A DNA stretch of 64,000 bases from Alphaproteobacteria bacterium (lineage in GTDB: Bacteria > Pseudomonadota > Alphaproteobacteria > JABAAW01 > JAHZMA01), in contig JAHZMA010000091.1 of NCBI GenBank assembly GCA_022599575.1, positions 1-64,000 on the forward strand, written 5' to 3'. Positions 41,122 through 47,143 of this stretch are shown in pieces (position 1 is the first letter of the stretch; each line of letters starts with the position of its first letter). The notes under the pieces were generated by a model. The model made no database searches and had not been told where the DNA came from. It worked only from the letters and a program-made list of their open reading frames with translations. The position numbers and the translations under genes were made by a program.

Positions 41122-41198
41122 GCGCCTGTAGCTCAGCTGGATAGAGTGCTTGACTACGAATCAAGAGGTCGGGAGTTCGAATCTTCCCAGGCGCGCCA
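41122..41198 (+). tRNA. tRNA-Arg (anticodon ACG)
   Basis: The 77-nt cloverleaf reads: acceptor stem GCGCCTG with CAGGCGC, D arm GCTC-AGCTGGATA-GAGT region, anticodon stem CTTGA with TCAAG around loop CTACGAA (anticodon ACG), T arm GGGAG-TTCGAAT-CTTCC, discriminator G and an encoded CCA end. ACG reads CGN arginine codons after conversion to inosine. It marks the left edge of the accessory island, consistent with tRNA genes acting as integration sites, though no integrase or duplicated tRNA end was found. Confidence 0.96.
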
Positions 41199-41287
41199 TT
41201 ATTGTAGCGCCATTTTTACTTTATATCACGTTGCCCTCTGATTGTTTAAACGATCGATATTTTAGTGCGTGGTACAGGCGGGGGGTA

Positions 41288-41350
41288 AAGGGGGGTCATT
41301 TTTGGCATTGGACTTCTGTCTCAATGCCTACAAAATGTCGCACCCCCCTT
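41288..41350. repeat. Long G/C-tract inverted repeat (63-nt hairpin)
   Basis: Three nested stems: AAGGGGGGT (41288-41296) with ACCCCCCTT (41342-41350), CATTTT (41297-41302) with AAAATG (41332-41337), and GGCATT (41304-41309) with AATGCC (41323-41328), around a 13-nt loop. Unpaired T/TAC and TCGC bulges separate the stems. The six-G and six-C runs are foreign to this AT-rich chromosome. A second G6 run lies directly upstream and a further C5 tract near 41407. It lies between tRNA-Arg and the island genes; it could be a strong terminator, a mobile-element relic or a recombination site. Confidence 0.8.
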
Positions 41351-41426
41351 ATAATAATGTTTTGCTACCTTATAAGAATAAATTTGCTATAATGCATCAT
41401 TTTCAACCCCCTTATCCGAGCCTGAT

Positions 41427-41786
41427 TTGTTTAGTCCACGTTATAAAAATACCATCACTGCAGAGTTTCAGCTTCTGCCCGAACGCGTTGATGCGCTAAA
41501 ATTATGGCAAAATGAAATCAATCAAGAATTGCGGAAGCCCAAAGATAAGCTTCGTGCCGAAAAACAAATGCACGAGCAATTTTTTACGGATATTTTTGAA
41601 AAAGTGCTTGGTTACAAAAAACGCAGCGCAGGCAATAACCAATGGACAATTACCAGCGAATATGCCACCGATTTAGACGCCACGCGCCCTGATGGTTGCT
41701 TGGGTGTTTTCACAGATGAAGCTGATAATGCTGATGATGTGCAGGCGGTGATAGAGTTAAAAAGCCTTAAAACCGACCTGATTTAA
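41427..41786 (+). pseudogene. N-terminal remnant of a type IIG restriction-modification enzyme
   Basis: The 119-residue frame (TTG start) ends abruptly. It has the N-terminal nuclease domain of large combined restriction-methylase proteins (Eco57I/TaqI-like class): a helical LPERVDALKLWQNEINQELR, KLRAEKQMHEQFFTDIFEKV, LGYKKRS, DLDATRPDGCLGVF and then AVIELKSLKTDL, which supplies the ExK half of a PD-(D/E)xK site. Intact relatives continue for several hundred residues with a methylase domain. Here the frame stops with TAA; reading stays protein-like for about 22 more codons in the same frame, then the opposite-strand R-M genes begin. Its likely C-terminal counterpart lies at 44640-44879. Confidence 0.65.
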
Positions 41787-41867: not shown

Positions 41868-42899
41868 TCAAATTTCATTTAATAATTTTTTTCTATTCCA
41901 ATTATAGCCATCGGGTTTAATAACTTCACCATTGAAAATTGCCTGTAATTTTCTATCGTTTATAATACGAGATGCTATTTTTTCTTCATTGATAAGAATT
42001 TCAGTTTCAGTATGTAAGCACCATTCTTGTAATACTTGTTTATATTCGATTTTATTACGATTGTCTTGATTGTTTAAAAATTTGCATTTTTCTATAAACT
42101 TACGGTCTGATATTACATTGATAATGGCGAGCAATTGTTTCATTGTATCTTTTTCACCTGATAAAAAATCCCATAATTCAGCTGAAAGTAAAATTTCATC
42201 TTCTGAAAAAAACTTGGTTCCGCCAATAATTGAGTTTAAAAAACGTTTTTTACAATATCCTGTTGTCGTATCGCTTGTAGGGTCGAAAGGGAACCCTAAA
42301 TAGAAATTAACGCTTTTGCCTTTAAAGAGACGTTTGAGAGCTACTCTACCTTCCATAATTTTACGTTTTTCGCTTATCATATTGCTAGAATTTGGCTTTA
42401 CGGTTTTTAATTCTATTGCTGTAACGGAAACGTTATTTTCAATAAACACATCTGCTGAAAAATCTTGTACATTGATAGTTACAGTATCATTCGTTTTTAG
42501 TATTTCTTGAAGCTCATTTGCAAGATTAGGGTTTCTTTTGCCATTAGAAAGTTGAGTAACTATTTCATCAATTTTGTTTTTTTGAGAGATTGGAATAGAT
42601 AAATTCCCTTTCTTTTTTGAAGTATATTCGCGTTTTTCACCACCAGATAAAATATGTGCAATTTTTTCAAAAAAGTTTTGTCCAAGAGTTGTGTTTAAAC
42701 CGTGTAACCAACTACTTAAACTAATAAAACACGGTATATCATGACCAATTTTCCCTAATTTATTACCAAACGCTTCTAAAAAAGCTTCATGAAAAGGTGC
42801 GTTACGATTATTTGAAGCATCTTGGGGGAATGTGTCAAATCGTTTTACTAAGATATTTATAACGGTGGATGCTACGTGTTCTTTGATTTCATTATTCAT
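41868..42899 (-). CDS. Type II restriction endonuclease, TdeIII-like
   Basis: The 343-residue protein lies one base after the methyltransferase stop, in the classic R-M order. The N-terminal segment NAPFHEAFLEAFGNKLGKIG followed by SLSSWLHGLNTTLGQNFFEK resembles the TdeIII family. A candidate PD-(D/E)xK site is FSADVF...VTAIELKTVK (about residues 150-170), with Asp and then E-x-K. If the family call is right, a GGNCC-like target is expected by family precedent, but this is not proven. The base composition is visibly more AT-rich than that of flanking housekeeping genes. Fallback description: R-M associated nuclease of unknown specificity. Confidence 0.65.
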   Translation of the reverse strand: MNNEIKEHVASTVINILVKRFDTFPQDASNNRNAPFHEAFLEAFGNKLGKIGHDIPCFISLSSWLHGLNTTLGQNFFEKIAHILSGGEKREYTSKKKGNLSIPISQKNKIDEIVTQLSNGKRNPNLANELQEILKTNDTVTINVQDFSADVFIENNVSVTAIELKTVKPNSSNMISEKRKIMEGRVALKRLFKGKSVNFYLGFPFDPTSDTTTGYCKKRFLNSIIGGTKFFSEDEILLSAELWDFLSGEKDTMKQLLAIINVISDRKFIEKCKFLNNQDNRNKIEYKQVLQEWCLHTETEILINEEKIASRIINDRKLQAIFNGEVIKPDGYNWNRKKLLNEI

Positions 42900-42900
42900 G

Positions 42901-44508
42901 TTAGCATTTTTTCAAGTGAAAAATTGTTTCTGAATAAGGATTTTTATCGCGTTCAGTTCTGTTTAGAACGGGTCTTTCATAGCTATTAATAATCTTCATA
43001 TCAGCTTGTTTTGCAATTTCAGGATATAAATTCCATTTATCATTAGCAACAAGGAAAACATTAAAATCATCAATCATATATTTGCGTGCATTTTTTAATA
43101 CCGCAGCTATTCCTTGAGCATATTCATCACGTGCTTTTTTGCCTTTCCCTTTATATAAGGGACCTATTTCTAGTTCATCGTTGCGTTCAAAACCAAATAA
43201 ATCATAGGCATAAGCATGTTGTTCGTGGTAATCAATTTGTCCAACATAGGGGGGAGAAGAAAATATACCGCTTATTTTATTTTTTGAAAGTAATTTGCCA
43301 AAAGTTAAATTATTTTTTGTTACCTCGCTTATTATATCTACTTCTTGAGAGTTTGCAGATAATACGGTTGAGTAGGCATTAGTACGAAGCGTTGAAAATT
43401 CTTTTAATCTTGCAACGGTATCATTAGCATAGCGTATAAACCAGTTTTTACTTGAAAAAATAGGTTTGCATATTTTTTTATGCTTATGGCAATAATAACT
43501 ATTAAATTGAGGCTCTTTTAATGTTGCAAGGTCAGAATGCATTGTAGCCCTACAAGAACGTATGGTACGGCTTAAAATAATACAGACAATATTTTTAATG
43601 TCTTTGTTTTTGATATTATTACTCAAAGCATAAATATTTTTAATTTCATCATAAATATTTTTAATGTACCATTTGTCTAAAAAGGTGTGGTTTTGGTCGG
43701 ATTGCAATTTTATATTATATTTTTGTAAAAGCTGATGATAATTATCTAAGAATTTTTTTTCTTTTTCTTGTGAATATACATCTTCATCGATTTCATCTTT
43801 ATAAACTTTTCTTTTGAATTGTGGGCTTGGAAAGTGTTTTTGATTAAACATTGAAAGTTCGTTTGAAAGTTCTTTTTCAAATTCCATAATTTTGGCATTC
43901 ACTGGAATTTCATTTAATTGAAAAATTATATTGGCTATTTCTTCTTCTAGTTCATGAAGTTGATAATTGGATAATTTTGCTTCAGCAATCGAACAGTTGA
44001 ATTTTGATATATCAATTCCGATGCTATTAATACCTAATTCGTTTGCTTGTACTAAGGTTGTACCAGAACCGCTAAAGGGGTCCAAAATGGTGTCGCCTTT
44101 ATTAAAAAATATGTCACGCTTAAAACTATCTATATGGCTATCAATAAAATATTCTACTAATTGAGGGATATATTTTCCTTTATAAGGGTGCAAGCGGTGC
44201 ACATGCTTGGTTGTATCTTTTTCTCTTAAATGGTCAAAAGATAGCGCCCAATTTAAATCATCACCTAATTTTTCTTTCCAACGGATTTCACGGTTGCCAA
44301 GGTAAGAATTATAATAAGATTGTAATTCTGCAATATCTATCAAGCCACCATCAAAGGTTTGAATTTTTCCATATTGAATAAGATAGCTGATATTACTATT
44401 AGAAATGTTGCGCGAAAGAAATGTACTTGCCCAACGCGAGGCTTCTTTCACAGTGACTAAGTTACTGTTAGATTCATTAGAAAGAATATTGAGCGATAAT
44501 TGATACAT
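42901..44508 (-). CDS. Type II DNA methyltransferase, probably N4-cytosine
   Basis: The SAM-binding motif I DPFSGSGTTLVQANELG (near residue 145) precedes the catalytic motif IV FSSPPYVGQIDYHEQ (near residue 415), with about 270 residues between. The S-P-P-Y motif is typical of m4C enzymes, and motif I before motif IV with a long insert is shared by a group of bacterial m4C methylases. A short N-terminal helix-turn-helix-like region (TVKEASRWASTFLSRNISNS) may bind DNA or a promoter. ATG 44508, with AGGAAG just upstream, is preferred over 44547. It protects the host against the adjoining nuclease. Confidence 0.82.
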   Translation of the reverse strand: MYQLSLNILSNESNSNLVTVKEASRWASTFLSRNISNSNISYLIQYGKIQTFDGGLIDIAELQSYYNSYLGNREIRWKEKLGDDLNWALSFDHLREKDTTKHVHRLHPYKGKYIPQLVEYFIDSHIDSFKRDIFFNKGDTILDPFSGSGTTLVQANELGINSIGIDISKFNCSIAEAKLSNYQLHELEEEIANIIFQLNEIPVNAKIMEFEKELSNELSMFNQKHFPSPQFKRKVYKDEIDEDVYSQEKEKKFLDNYHQLLQKYNIKLQSDQNHTFLDKWYIKNIYDEIKNIYALSNNIKNKDIKNIVCIILSRTIRSCRATMHSDLATLKEPQFNSYYCHKHKKICKPIFSSKNWFIRYANDTVARLKEFSTLRTNAYSTVLSANSQEVDIISEVTKNNLTFGKLLSKNKISGIFSSPPYVGQIDYHEQHAYAYDLFGFERNDELEIGPLYKGKGKKARDEYAQGIAAVLKNARKYMIDDFNVFLVANDKWNLYPEIAKQADMKIINSYERPVLNRTERDKNPYSETIFHLKKC

Positions 44509-44639
44509 AGCTTCCTGCAAATTAATATACCTGAATATAAAGTACATACTTTATAAGATACATACAAGAGATACAATGGAGTTATCCAAATTCATTATCT
44601 ATATCATGTTTCTTACGCCCTGCTTCACCGCTTCGCTTG

Positions 44640-44879
44640 CCAAGTTCTGACATAGCATGGCTAATAATAGGGTCATATTTAACCAACAAGCTGAAAAAAG
44701 ATAACATCACCCTAAAAGGCGAAGTAAAAGAAGAATGGCTAGAGAGATTCGAACGGTTAAAATCCGAGATACAGGTGATAGATACCGCCATCACCCAAGC
44801 CGAGCAAACACTCAACCAACTCACCTATCAACTTTACGGGCTAACAACAGAAGAAACCAACCTGATTGAGGGTGAGTAA
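44640..44879 (+). pseudogene. C-terminal remnant of a type IIG restriction-modification enzyme
   Basis: This open stretch reads KEEWLERFERLKSEIQVID, then AEQTLNQLTYQLYGLTTEET and NLIEGE before a stop. The xxLVYxLYGLTxEExxxxE end is the hallmark C-terminus of large type II restriction-methylases. There is no ribosome site or plausible start, and the upstream part is not protein-like. It has the same strand as the 41427 remnant and the expected polarity, so both are probably the two ends of one broken gene with its middle lost and an R-M pair in its place. Confidence 0.6.
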
Positions 44880-45131
44880 TGGAATTTCACATTAAAAGCA
44901 AAATCAAGGTCGCTGTTAATCAATAAGATGCTTTATTCACACTTTATCCCTTTAGTTATCCATAGAGTCTTAAAAATTAAAATAAAGAAATTTATTGATA
45001 TAAAAAACAATCCACAGAAAATTATAAAAAATTATTGAATCAAATCAGAGTCTTGACTCAATAATTTGGCTAATGAATTTGACGGGTGCCATTTTTTGTT
45101 CATAATCATTTATAATGGCATTAAGGTAATT
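44880..45131 (+). promoter_or_regulatory. Promoter region of the DprA-like/PRTase cassette with inverted repeats
   Basis: This is a 252-nt very AT-rich gap. AAATTATTGA (45029-45038) and TCAATAATTT (45058-45067) are perfect inverted repeats 19 nt apart. A second palindrome, GAGTC-TT-GACTC (45048-45059), partly overlaps the right arm and contains a TTGACT (-35-like) at 45053-45058. A repressor binding site over a promoter is plausible. AAGG at 45123-45126 lies 5 nt before the ATG at 45132. No ORF is supported in the gap; a frame opening at 45066 is only an extension of the next gene. Confidence 0.45.
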
Positions 45132-46052
45132 ATGAATATGAATACACAGTCACAGCTTTTAAAATCTTTTGATAATCAATCGCCTTTTCACAATGCGTTA
45201 TGCGATTCTGATGAAATTGGTGCGTTTGAAGCTTTGTGGCTTGGCGAAGATGTGAAAAGTTCAAAAGGGATTGCAACTAAATTTAAATCTTTTCCTGAAG
45301 CATCACATGCTGATTTAATTGATAATGAAACAATGATTAAAGAACATGCGAAACGGGTTTATGATATTTTTGATAAAGAAAGAATTAAACCTTCTTTGAT
45401 ACTACGTTCTACCTATAATTATCCTAAAAGATTAAATGATGCCCAATATCCTGTTAGCTTGATGTATGCAAGGGGTAATATCAATTTCCTTGAAGAAAAA
45501 TCTGCCGTTGCTGTGATTGGCACAAGAACTGCAACTGATGAGGGCAAGGCGCGCACCAAACGATTGGTCAAAATATTAGTTGATGAAGGTTTTATTATTG
45601 TATCAGGGTTGGCGGAAGGCATTGATACTGTTGCTCACCAAACCGCCATTAATAATGGGGGTAAAACGATTGCGGTGATGGGTGTACCAATCAGCCGTTA
45701 CTACCCTACAAAAAATAGAGATTTGCAAGATGAAATTGCAAAGAATCATTTATTATTGTCGCATGTTCCTGTTTTACGTTCTTATCAGCAGCAAGATACT
45801 CGAAAGCTTAATTTTTTCTTTCCTGAACGTAATAGTATTATGTCCGCTTTGTCTCAGGCAAGTATCATTGTGGAAGCTTCTGATACGTCAGGAACATTGA
45901 TACAAGCAAAACAAGCATTAAAACAAGGCAGACAGCTTTTTATTCTTGATAGTTGCTTTAATAATTCAGATTTGAAATGGCCACATCAATTTTTGGCAAA
46001 AGGAGCTATTCGCGTTAAAGAACCAGAGGATATTATAAAAAACCTTGGTTAA
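45132..46052 (+). CDS. DprA-like (SLOG superfamily) protein of a defence-type cassette
   Basis: The 306-residue protein has the complete DprA/Smf Rossmann-fold pattern: AVAVIGTRTATDEGKARTKR, FIIVSGLAEGIDTVAHQTAI, GGKTIAVMGVPISRYYPTKN, FFPERNSIMSALSQASIIVE, then SDTSGTLIQAKQALKQGR. Housekeeping DprA has an N-terminal SAM-like and C-terminal winged-helix domain; here the N-terminal 110 residues are unlike these and the protein ends right after the fold. The SLOG superfamily (Smf/DprA-LOG) has been proposed to bind or process nucleotides in conflict systems. The next gene, overlapping by 8 nt, codes a phosphoribosyltransferase, so a joint nucleotide-related role is inferred. ATG 45132 with AAGG upstream is chosen over 45066. 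Confidence 0.78.
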   Translation: MNMNTQSQLLKSFDNQSPFHNALCDSDEIGAFEALWLGEDVKSSKGIATKFKSFPEASHADLIDNETMIKEHAKRVYDIFDKERIKPSLILRSTYNYPKRLNDAQYPVSLMYARGNINFLEEKSAVAVIGTRTATDEGKARTKRLVKILVDEGFIIVSGLAEGIDTVAHQTAINNGGKTIAVMGVPISRYYPTKNRDLQDEIAKNHLLLSHVPVLRSYQQQDTRKLNFFFPERNSIMSALSQASIIVEASDTSGTLIQAKQALKQGRQLFILDSCFNNSDLKWPHQFLAKGAIRVKEPEDIIKNLG

Positions 46053-46710
46053 TTTTAATTTACGTAAAATAGAATTAAAAGATAACCATCATTTTATTAA
46101 TAAAAATGATGAATGTTTTTATATGATGGCGTTTGTATCACCGTTAGATTACCGAAATGGTGTAGAGGAAGATTTGCTTTATAATTTTAAAAAGCCGATG
46201 TATAAAAAACCCAATCCATTAGAGTGGCGACATAAAGAAAAAGCAATAAGAGAAATAGCTGATATTTTTAAAAACAGTGTTTTTGATAAGTTTAACAATA
46301 AACAAACGATTGTTATTCCTATACCACCATCGAAAATAGTAGAACATGATGGACATGATGATAGAGTTGTACAGCTTTTAAAGATTGCACTTAAAGAAAA
46401 TATTAAAGTTACGTATAGGGATGATATTTTGATTCAAACAGAAAGCTATCCAGCATCACATGAAAACGATGGAAATCGTATATCAAAGGAAAAGCTTGAA
46501 TCAATTTATGAAATTAAGTTAGATGCGTTAGATTTAAATATTGAACAAATTATTATTTTTGATGATGTTATTACTTCAGGTGCTCATTTTAGAGCAGTTT
46601 GTAATAAACTTGAACAAGGGTTAGGTGATAAATTTCAAGAATATGATATTAAAGGCTTGTTTATCGGTAGAAAAATTCACGAAGAGTCTGACAATGATTT
46701 CATAATATGA
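46045..46710 (+). CDS. Phosphoribosyltransferase-fold protein paired with the DprA-like gene
   Basis: The 221-residue protein carries the type I phosphoribosyltransferase PRPP loop as IIIFDDVITSGAHFRAVCNK (about residues 167-186), preceded by a strand IVIPIPPSK like the ComF-type family. The mid-region RISKEKLESIYEIKLDAL matches the flexible-loop segment of ComF-like proteins only loosely. The acceptor base is not identifiable. The gene starts at TTG 46045, overlapping the upstream stop by 8 nt, so translation is coupled; the next ATG pair is at 46123 and would remove 26 residues of plausible protein. It lies 4 nt before the end of convergent aroQ. Confidence 0.7.
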   Translation: MVNFNLRKIELKDNHHFINKNDECFYMMAFVSPLDYRNGVEEDLLYNFKKPMYKKPNPLEWRHKEKAIREIADIFKNSVFDKFNNKQTIVIPIPPSKIVEHDGHDDRVVQLLKIALKENIKVTYRDDILIQTESYPASHENDGNRISKEKLESIYEIKLDALDLNIEQIIIFDDVITSGAHFRAVCNKLEQGLGDKFQEYDIKGLFIGRKIHEESDNDFII

Positions 46711-46714
46711 ATAA

Positions 46715-47143
46715 TCACCCCAACCATTCACTCATTTTTTGTGCGGCGAAGATATAGCCTGATGCGCCTAGCCCCACAATCGCACCATTGGCGCGGGTGG
46801 TGATATAAGAATGATGGCGAAAGGATTCGCGGCTATAAATATTGCTGAGATGCACTTCAATCACATAGCCCTCATAGGCATTTAGCGCATCAAAAATCGC
46901 GATAGATGTATGGCTAAACGCGCCTGCATTGATGATGATGCCAGCATAAGTGCCACGTGCCTCGTGAATTTTATCAATCAACACCCCCTCATGGTTGGAT
47001 TGCAGATGGTCAATTTGTAGGTTGCTGAATGTTTTTTGGCAACGCGCCATAATATCATCAAGCGTATTCGTGCCGTAAAGGTCAGGTTCTCGTGTGCCGA
47101 GTAAATTTAAGTTTGGTCCGTTTATGATAAGAATTTTATTCAT
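46715..47143 (-). CDS. aroQ: Type II 3-dehydroquinate dehydratase
   Basis: The enzyme catalyses the third step of the shikimate pathway. It has the complete family pattern: ILIINGPNLNLLGTREPDLYG at the start with the catalytic-loop region following, GIIINAGAFSHTSIAIFDAL, VEVHLSNIYSRESFRHHSY (here reading VIEVHLSN) and AIVGLGASGYIFA. The length is 142 residues. In many alphaproteobacteria aroQ precedes accBC; that is not so here, since the island ends directly against it. Confidence 0.97.
   Translation of the reverse strand: MNKILIINGPNLNLLGTREPDLYGTNTLDDIMARCQKTFSNLQIDHLQSNHEGVLIDKIHEARGTYAGIIINAGAFSHTSIAIFDALNAYEGYVIEVHLSNIYSRESFRHHSYITTRANGAIVGLGASGYIFAAQKMSEWLG

What the first reader, a model, noticed from the sequence alone, without database searches (positions are those of the whole stretch)
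45132..46710. Two-gene cassette of a stripped-down DprA/SLOG protein with a phosphoribosyltransferase
The DprA fold is intact, but both usual accessory domains are absent, and the gene overlaps a PRPP-loop phosphoribosyltransferase by 8 nt. The pair lies in a defence island next to an R-M system, has its own inverted-repeat promoter region and is AT-rich. SLOG proteins are proposed nucleotide sensors or processors in conflict systems; a PRTase could make or salvage a nucleotide signal. I cannot tell whether this exact pair has been catalogued.
Basis: partly seen in the sequence, partly recalled or inferred. Interest (0 to 1): 0.85.

Follow-up and report, generated by a model that had tools for sequence, protein, structure and literature searches.

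The report
Short-form ShosTA toxin–antitoxin anti-phage pair
The two genes are a member of an already catalogued bacterial anti-phage toxin–antitoxin system called ShosTA, in a compact form whose toxin lacks the extra domain of the solved example, and the toxin gene varies much more between close relatives than its antitoxin does.

Summary
There is a 306-aa DprA-family gene (45132-46052) and, overlapping it by 8 nt, a 221-aa phosphoribosyltransferase (PRTase) gene (46045-46710). They lie in a 5.5-kb low-GC stretch beside a TdeIII-type restriction-modification pair. The pair is already catalogued: PADLOC calls the genes ShosA (E=4e-88) and ShosT (E=1.6e-24). Of 121 related ShosT genes in genomes and viral contigs, 118 have ShosA directly upstream; the other three lie at a contig edge. 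The genome carries a separate canonical dprA and comF, so this is not its competence set.

"Stripped-down" is overstated: a conserved three-helix N-terminal region is kept and only the C-terminal domain is missing. The solved E. coli ShosT has 424 residues, with an HAD-like hydrolase domain before the PRTase. The window ShosT is a ComF-like PRTase alone, so the reported PRTase-plus-pyrophosphatase mechanism cannot be carried over whole.

The new point is variation. In a second allele from the same metagenomic bin, the sequenced part of shosA is 98% identical while most of shosT is about 65%, with a 97%-identical block around the PRPP loop. Several enterobacterial pairs show the same imbalance.

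Verdict: new member of a known kind, moderate interest.

The parts
45132..46052 (+). shosA: DprA/SLOG-family antitoxin, 306 aa; three-helix N-terminal region (residues 25-82) plus Rossmann (DprA) domain (about 87-295), no C-terminal winged helix
   Evidence: PADLOC ShosA PDLC03961 4.2e-88; Pfam PF02481 3.3e-58; AlphaFold pLDDT 92.2; PDB fold matches 3uqz DprA and 8zva ShosA
46045..46710 (+). shosT: ComF-like phosphoribosyltransferase toxin, 221 aa, TTG start, 8-nt overlap with shosA
   Evidence: PADLOC ShosT PDLC03962 1.6e-24; pLDDT 91.9; PDB fold matches 7p0h ComF 3e-6 and 8zvc ShosT with PRPP-Mg 1e-5; profile match to ComF, probability 96.5%
46558..46581 (+). PRPP-binding loop FDDVITSG of ShosT (residues 172-179)
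   Evidence: D173 D174 T177 G179 invariant in 96 sequences
46318..46335 (+). PIPPSK motif of ShosT (P92-K97), probable pyrophosphate loop
   Evidence: P94 invariant, P92/S96/K97 at least 90% conserved; assigned by analogy with the ComF PPi loop (PMC9005727)
46069..46551 (+). region of shosT replaced in the co-binned allele (47% aa, 65% nt identity)
46552..46653 (+). island of near-identity around the PRPP loop in the two alleles (97% nt; 31 of 32 synonymous codons identical)
45029..45067 (.). inverted repeat upstream of shosA, arms 15 nt, 14/15 complementary; possible operator, unproven
   Evidence: promoter scan at chance level
41868..42899 (-). neighbouring TdeIII-type type II restriction endonuclease
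   Evidence: Pfam RE_TdeIII 7.9e-61, PADLOC REase_II
42901..44547 (-). neighbouring DNA methyltransferase of the R-M pair
   Evidence: PADLOC MTase_II 2.3e-218
41122..41198 (+). tRNA-Arg (ACG) at the left edge of the low-GC stretch
   Evidence: ARAGORN, Rfam tRNA

Best explanation
A ShosTA-type toxin-antitoxin and abortive-infection module of the short-ShosT form. shosA and shosT are co-translated from one mRNA (inferred from the 8-nt overlap). ShosT, a ComF-like PRTase, binds Mg-PRPP through its DDVxTxG loop and, when not restrained, transfers or consumes phosphoribosyl pyrophosphate, disturbing the nucleotide pool and damaging replication until growth stops (inferred from the conserved active-site residues and from reports on the long-form relative and RqlH). 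ShosA, a DNA-binding DprA-family protein, holds ShosT in check and/or repairs the damage; phage interference with host or phage DNA metabolism tips the balance (inferred). Shown here: gene pair, fold, active-site conservation, obligate co-occurrence, mobility and allele variation. Not shown: toxicity, neutralisation, anti-phage activity, substrate.
For: PADLOC ShosA/ShosT hits. 118/121 co-occurrence, same order, mostly overlapping or abutting, including phage Mana, phage Riah and plasmids of Enterobacter, E. coli, Rhizobium and Sphingobium. Short ShosA proteins including the window's form one clade with 100% ultrafast-bootstrap support, apart from 19 canonical DprAs. Fold match of the ShosT model to PDB 8zvc 'ShosT with PRPP-Mg' and of ShosA to 8zva 'ShosA from E. 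coli APEC O1'. Literature: a DprA+PRTase pair protects E. coli against T7 and lambda (PMC9122126); ShosT disturbs purine metabolism and causes filamentation and death, ShosA counteracts it (review PMC12593503 citing Pu et al. 2025); in RqlHI the PRTase domain is genotoxic, mutating the PRPP pocket largely removes toxicity and the DprA-like partner restrains it (PMC4670107).
Against: The biochemically characterised ShosT is a 424-aa HAD-PRTase protein; the window ShosT has no HAD domain and no significant BLASTP match to it (E=0.68), so the published mechanism may hold only in part. Nothing was tested at the bench. The Pu et al. 2025 paper itself is not in the library and is known here only through a review.
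Confidence: 0.82

Rival explanations
1. Sensor-effector defence without toxin-antitoxin logic: ShosA directly senses phage DNA or DNA-protein complexes and switches on the PRTase effector, which is harmless otherwise.
For: Proposed for the DprA+PRTase pair in PMC9122126; ShosTA is said to respond to phage ssDNA-binding protein or DNA-protein complexes (PMC10732053); ComFC, the closest fold, interacts with DprA in competent species (PMC9005727).
Against: The same paper describes DprA homologues as antitoxins in shosTA, syrTA and rqlHI; removal of the DprA-like RqlI leaves RqlH toxic.
Confidence: 0.12
2. A competence or DNA-uptake pair (DprA with ComF) of the host.
For: ShosT is related to ComF (NCBIfam ComF 6e-6; profile match 96.5%; best fold match 7p0h ComF) and ShosA to DprA.
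Against: The genome has a separate canonical dprA (C60) and a separate ComF-like gene (C75). ShosT lacks ComF's four-cysteine zinc finger. The pair sits on phages, plasmids and variable islands.
Confidence: 0.02
3. Nucleotide-signal or salvage module in which the PRTase makes a nucleotide messenger sensed by the SLOG protein.
For: A SLOG-containing effector, Thoeris ThsA, is activated by cyclic ADP-ribose isomers (abstract of PMC11204291); PRTases make nucleotides.
Against: No further effector gene travels with the pair in the annotated loci; ShosA groups with DprA proteins rather than ligand-sensing SLOG clusters (only a weak LDcluster4 hit). No signal is reported for characterised relatives in the sources read here.
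Confidence: 0.04

Closest known systems
ShosTA, PADLOC models PDLC03961 (ShosA) and PDLC03962 (ShosT)
   Same: Both proteins hit, at 4e-88 and 1.6e-24; same gene order and overlap as 118 relatives.
   Different: The window ShosT is a low-scoring member (85 bits against 116-170 for other short ShosTs); the window ShosA branches first in the short clade.
Long-form ShosTA of E. coli APEC O1 / P2-like prophages (PDB 8zva, 8zvb-d, 9vzo, 9w2p/q; phage P2_4C9)
   Same: DprA-family antitoxin followed by a PRTase-domain toxin with a PRPP loop; same fold.
   Different: Its ShosT has 424 aa with an N-terminal HAD-like domain (Pfam 3e-4) and only 11% structural-alignment identity to the window's 221-aa protein; ShosA is 32% identical over 184 residues.
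PsyrTA / RqlHI
   Same: DprA-like antitoxin with a PRTase-domain toxin; PRTase domain genotoxic without the partner.
   Different: There the PRTase is fused to a RecQ-like helicase; none here. PADLOC PsyrT hit is only 0.0079.
ComFC and DprA of natural transformation
   Same: ShosT is related to ComF and ShosA to DprA; ComFC and DprA interact in some competent species.
   Different: No zinc finger in ShosT, no C-terminal domain in ShosA, separate operon and mobile context.

Membership tests
ShosTA (broad, as catalogued in PADLOC) | DprA-family antitoxin gene | tested here: met
   PDLC03961 4.2e-88; clade support 100%
ShosTA (broad, as catalogued in PADLOC) | PRTase-family toxin gene with PRPP loop | tested here: met
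   PDLC03962 1.6e-24; invariant DDxxTxG; fold
ShosTA (broad, as catalogued in PADLOC) | the two genes adjacent, shosA first, conserved together | tested here: met
   118/121, remaining 3 at contig edges
ShosTA (broad, as catalogued in PADLOC) | ShosT toxic, ShosA neutralises; protection against phage | not testable with these tools
   needs bench assay
Long-form (APEC O1 / P2) ShosTA with HAD-PRTase toxin | N-terminal HAD-like hydrolase domain in ShosT | tested here: not met
   window ShosT is 221 aa with no HAD hit and no room for one; the long form has one
PsyrTA / RqlHI | RecQ-like helicase fused to the PRTase | tested here: not met
   no helicase domain; PsyrT hit 0.0079
Canonical DprA (competence) | falls in the DprA clade, equivalog score reached | tested here: not met
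   TIGR00732 180.5 bits against cut-off 191.15; separate clade, support 100%
ComF | N-terminal four-cysteine zinc finger | tested here: not met
   window ShosT has no Cx2C pairs; ComF set has invariant C19 C22 C32 C35

The most novel reading that the evidence does not exclude
The short ShosTA form is a mechanistically distinct system (PRTase alone, no HAD pyrophosphatase) in which the toxin, not the antitoxin, is the fast-changing partner: shosT alleles are exchanged or diversified around a conserved PRPP loop while shosA stays nearly fixed, because ShosT's variable surface is what phage triggers or phage inhibitors contact.
Probability: 0.3. Interest if true: 0.6.

Novelty: new member of a known kind. 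Interest (0 to 1): 0.38.

Why it matters
It shows that the catalogue name ShosTA covers two clearly different toxins: a solved HAD-PRTase form and a widespread PRTase-only form related to ComF. Published biochemistry should therefore not be carried over to the short form without testing. The strong imbalance between a near-constant antitoxin and a variable, partly mosaic toxin makes it directly testable whether the toxin surface is the point of contact with phages.

Tried and rejected
A search of viral contigs with ShosA alone found nothing; the ShosT profile worked. The PADLOC ShosT profile on related genomes mostly rings on housekeeping ComF (13 of 14 control genomes), so those counts were not used. 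The competence reading was rejected because dprA and comF exist elsewhere. The promoter claim was not accepted because site counts are at chance. A search for direct repeats bounding the island at the tRNA gave nothing convincing. An explanation of the shosT/shosA imbalance purely by allele replacement was rejected: in several pairs synonymous divergence is similar in both genes (e.g. L115/L120 p=0.44, L144/L148 p=0.47), so fast protein evolution also contributes. The primary mechanism paper (Pu et al. 2025) and Kimelman 2012 could not be opened. Neighbour scans have no control set, so enrichment is not claimed as a statistic. A fold search against viral models gave nothing closer than generic PRTases. 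The window's organism was not identified.

Full report
What is there. Gene 1 (45132-46052) encodes a 306-aa DprA-family protein and gene 2 (46045-46710) a 221-aa PRTase; they overlap by 8 nt. Pfam finds DNA_processg_A in gene 1 (3.3e-58) but only weak PRTase hits in gene 2. PADLOC identifies ShosA (4.2e-88) and ShosT (1.6e-24). AlphaFold models are confident (ShosT pLDDT 91.9; ShosA 92.2). ShosT's best solved matches are ComF 7p0h and 8zvc 'ShosT with PRPP-Mg'; ShosA's are S. pneumoniae DprA 3uqz and, among others, 8zva 'ShosA from E. coli APEC O1'.

Architecture. ShosA keeps a three-helix N-terminal region (helices 25-37, 44-53, 66-82) with strongly conserved positions (E28, A31, E33, L35, W36) in 77 relatives and lacks a C-terminal winged helix, so 'both accessory domains absent' is only half right. 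ShosT has a family-specific N-terminal part (conserved C24, N47, K49, K64), a PxPPSK motif, D105/R107, H139 and the invariant DDxxTxG loop. A profile comparison with ComF proteins gives 96.5% probability, but ComF's zinc-finger cysteines are absent.

Co-occurrence and spread. A ShosT profile drew 80 loci from genomes and 41 from viral contigs. In 118 of 121, ShosA lies directly upstream, mostly overlapping or abutting; in the other three the contig starts at shosT. Hosts range over Proteobacteria, Bacteroidota, Acidobacteriota, Chloroflexota, Nitrospira and a cyanobacterium (record titles). Annotated phages and plasmids carry the same pair. The short ShosA proteins including the window's form one clade (support 100%), apart from canonical DprA. 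The genome's own dprA (C60) and a ComF-like gene (C75) are elsewhere.

Two forms under one name. Phage P2_4C9 carries the long form: ShosT 424 aa, identical or nearly so to PDB 8zvb-d (phmmer 977 bits over residues 1-424), with an HAD-like N-terminal half. The window ShosT shows no significant BLASTP match to it and the ShosAs are 32% identical over 184 residues. Of the 121 short-type open frames, 119 are too short (305 aa or less, stop to stop) to hold an HAD domain plus PRTase; L149 and L150 are longer. The review PMC12593503 says, citing Pu et al. 2025, that ShosT is both a phosphoribosyltransferase and a pyrophosphatase, disturbs purine metabolism and leads to DNA duplications, filamentation and death, that ShosA binds DNA and counteracts it, and that T7 Gp0.7 is a trigger. 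If the pyrophosphatase is the HAD part (inference), the short form must work by its PRTase alone. In RqlHI the PRTase domain accounts for the toxicity and a PRPP-pocket mutation largely removes it (PMC4670107), which makes a PRTase-only toxin plausible.

Toxin variation. A second contig of the same bin (C23) holds the same locus with the same flanks (aroQ, Sel1-repeat gene) and starts inside shosA. It is best read as a co-binned strain (bin contamination 5.2%). The sequenced part of shosA (last 137 codons including the stop) is 404/411 nt identical; aroQ is 94% and the Sel1 gene 88%. shosT codons 9-169 are 47% aa and 65% nt identical, codons 170-203 (PRPP loop) 97% nt with 31/32 synonymous codons identical, and the end diverges again. 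Synonymous identity differs between shosA (126/131) and the variable part of shosT (49/71), p=1.5e-7, so this is a mosaic produced by recombination, not by selection on the protein alone. Among distant loci, ShosA pairs above 90% identity have ShosT identities from 57 to 100%. In enterobacterial pairs nucleotide identity drops at or just after the gene junction, and synonymous divergence is significantly higher in shosT for some pairs and equal for others. Both allele replacement and fast protein change seem to occur. The pairs are not independent, so this is a lead, not a law.

Setting. The stretch from tRNA-Arg (41122-41198) to aroQ (46715-47143) has GC 0.29-0.35 over most of its length. It holds a TdeIII-type R-M pair lying between two fragments that look like the two ends of a type IIG enzyme (41427-41786 and 44637-44879), then shosTA. 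Neighbours of relatives include AbiD, PbeA, an oligonucleotide cyclase, methyltransferases, DruA, ImmA/IrrE-type peptidases and phage integrases. This fits a defence or mobile context, without a control set.

Verdict. A real, conserved, mobile, defence-type pair that is already named. It is a divergent, early-branching member of the short ShosTA form. Function is inferred with good confidence; substrate and trigger of the short form are open.

Noticed in passing
window 41274-41364: A ~90-nt strongly hairpin-forming sequence next to tRNA-Arg recurs in at least six other contigs of the genome at roughly 78-88% identity: a dispersed palindromic repeat with no Rfam match.
   Followed up: partly
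window 41427-41786 and 44637-44879: Two same-strand fragments resemble the N- and C-terminal ends of type IIG restriction enzymes, with the TdeIII R-M pair between them on the other strand: probably an older R-M gene broken by the newer cassette.
   Followed up: partly
L002/L004 (G000:C23): A second allele of the locus from a co-binned strain with a mosaic shosT.
   Followed up: yes
E. coli genomes (hits H22-H77): About 640 E. coli genomes hold only a 3' remnant of a short-form shosT without a matching shosA, in many listed cases beside an IS30 transposase.
   Followed up: no
L149, L150: Two viral contigs have a longer ShosT-like open frame (~390 aa) with the PRTase part at its end and a more distant DprA partner: possible further toxin fusion forms.
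   Followed up: no
L027 8439-8567: The Rhizobium plasmid pRACO34Aa carries a second annotated DprA gene about 4 kb from its shosTA pair, beyond IS66 transposase genes.
   Followed up: no
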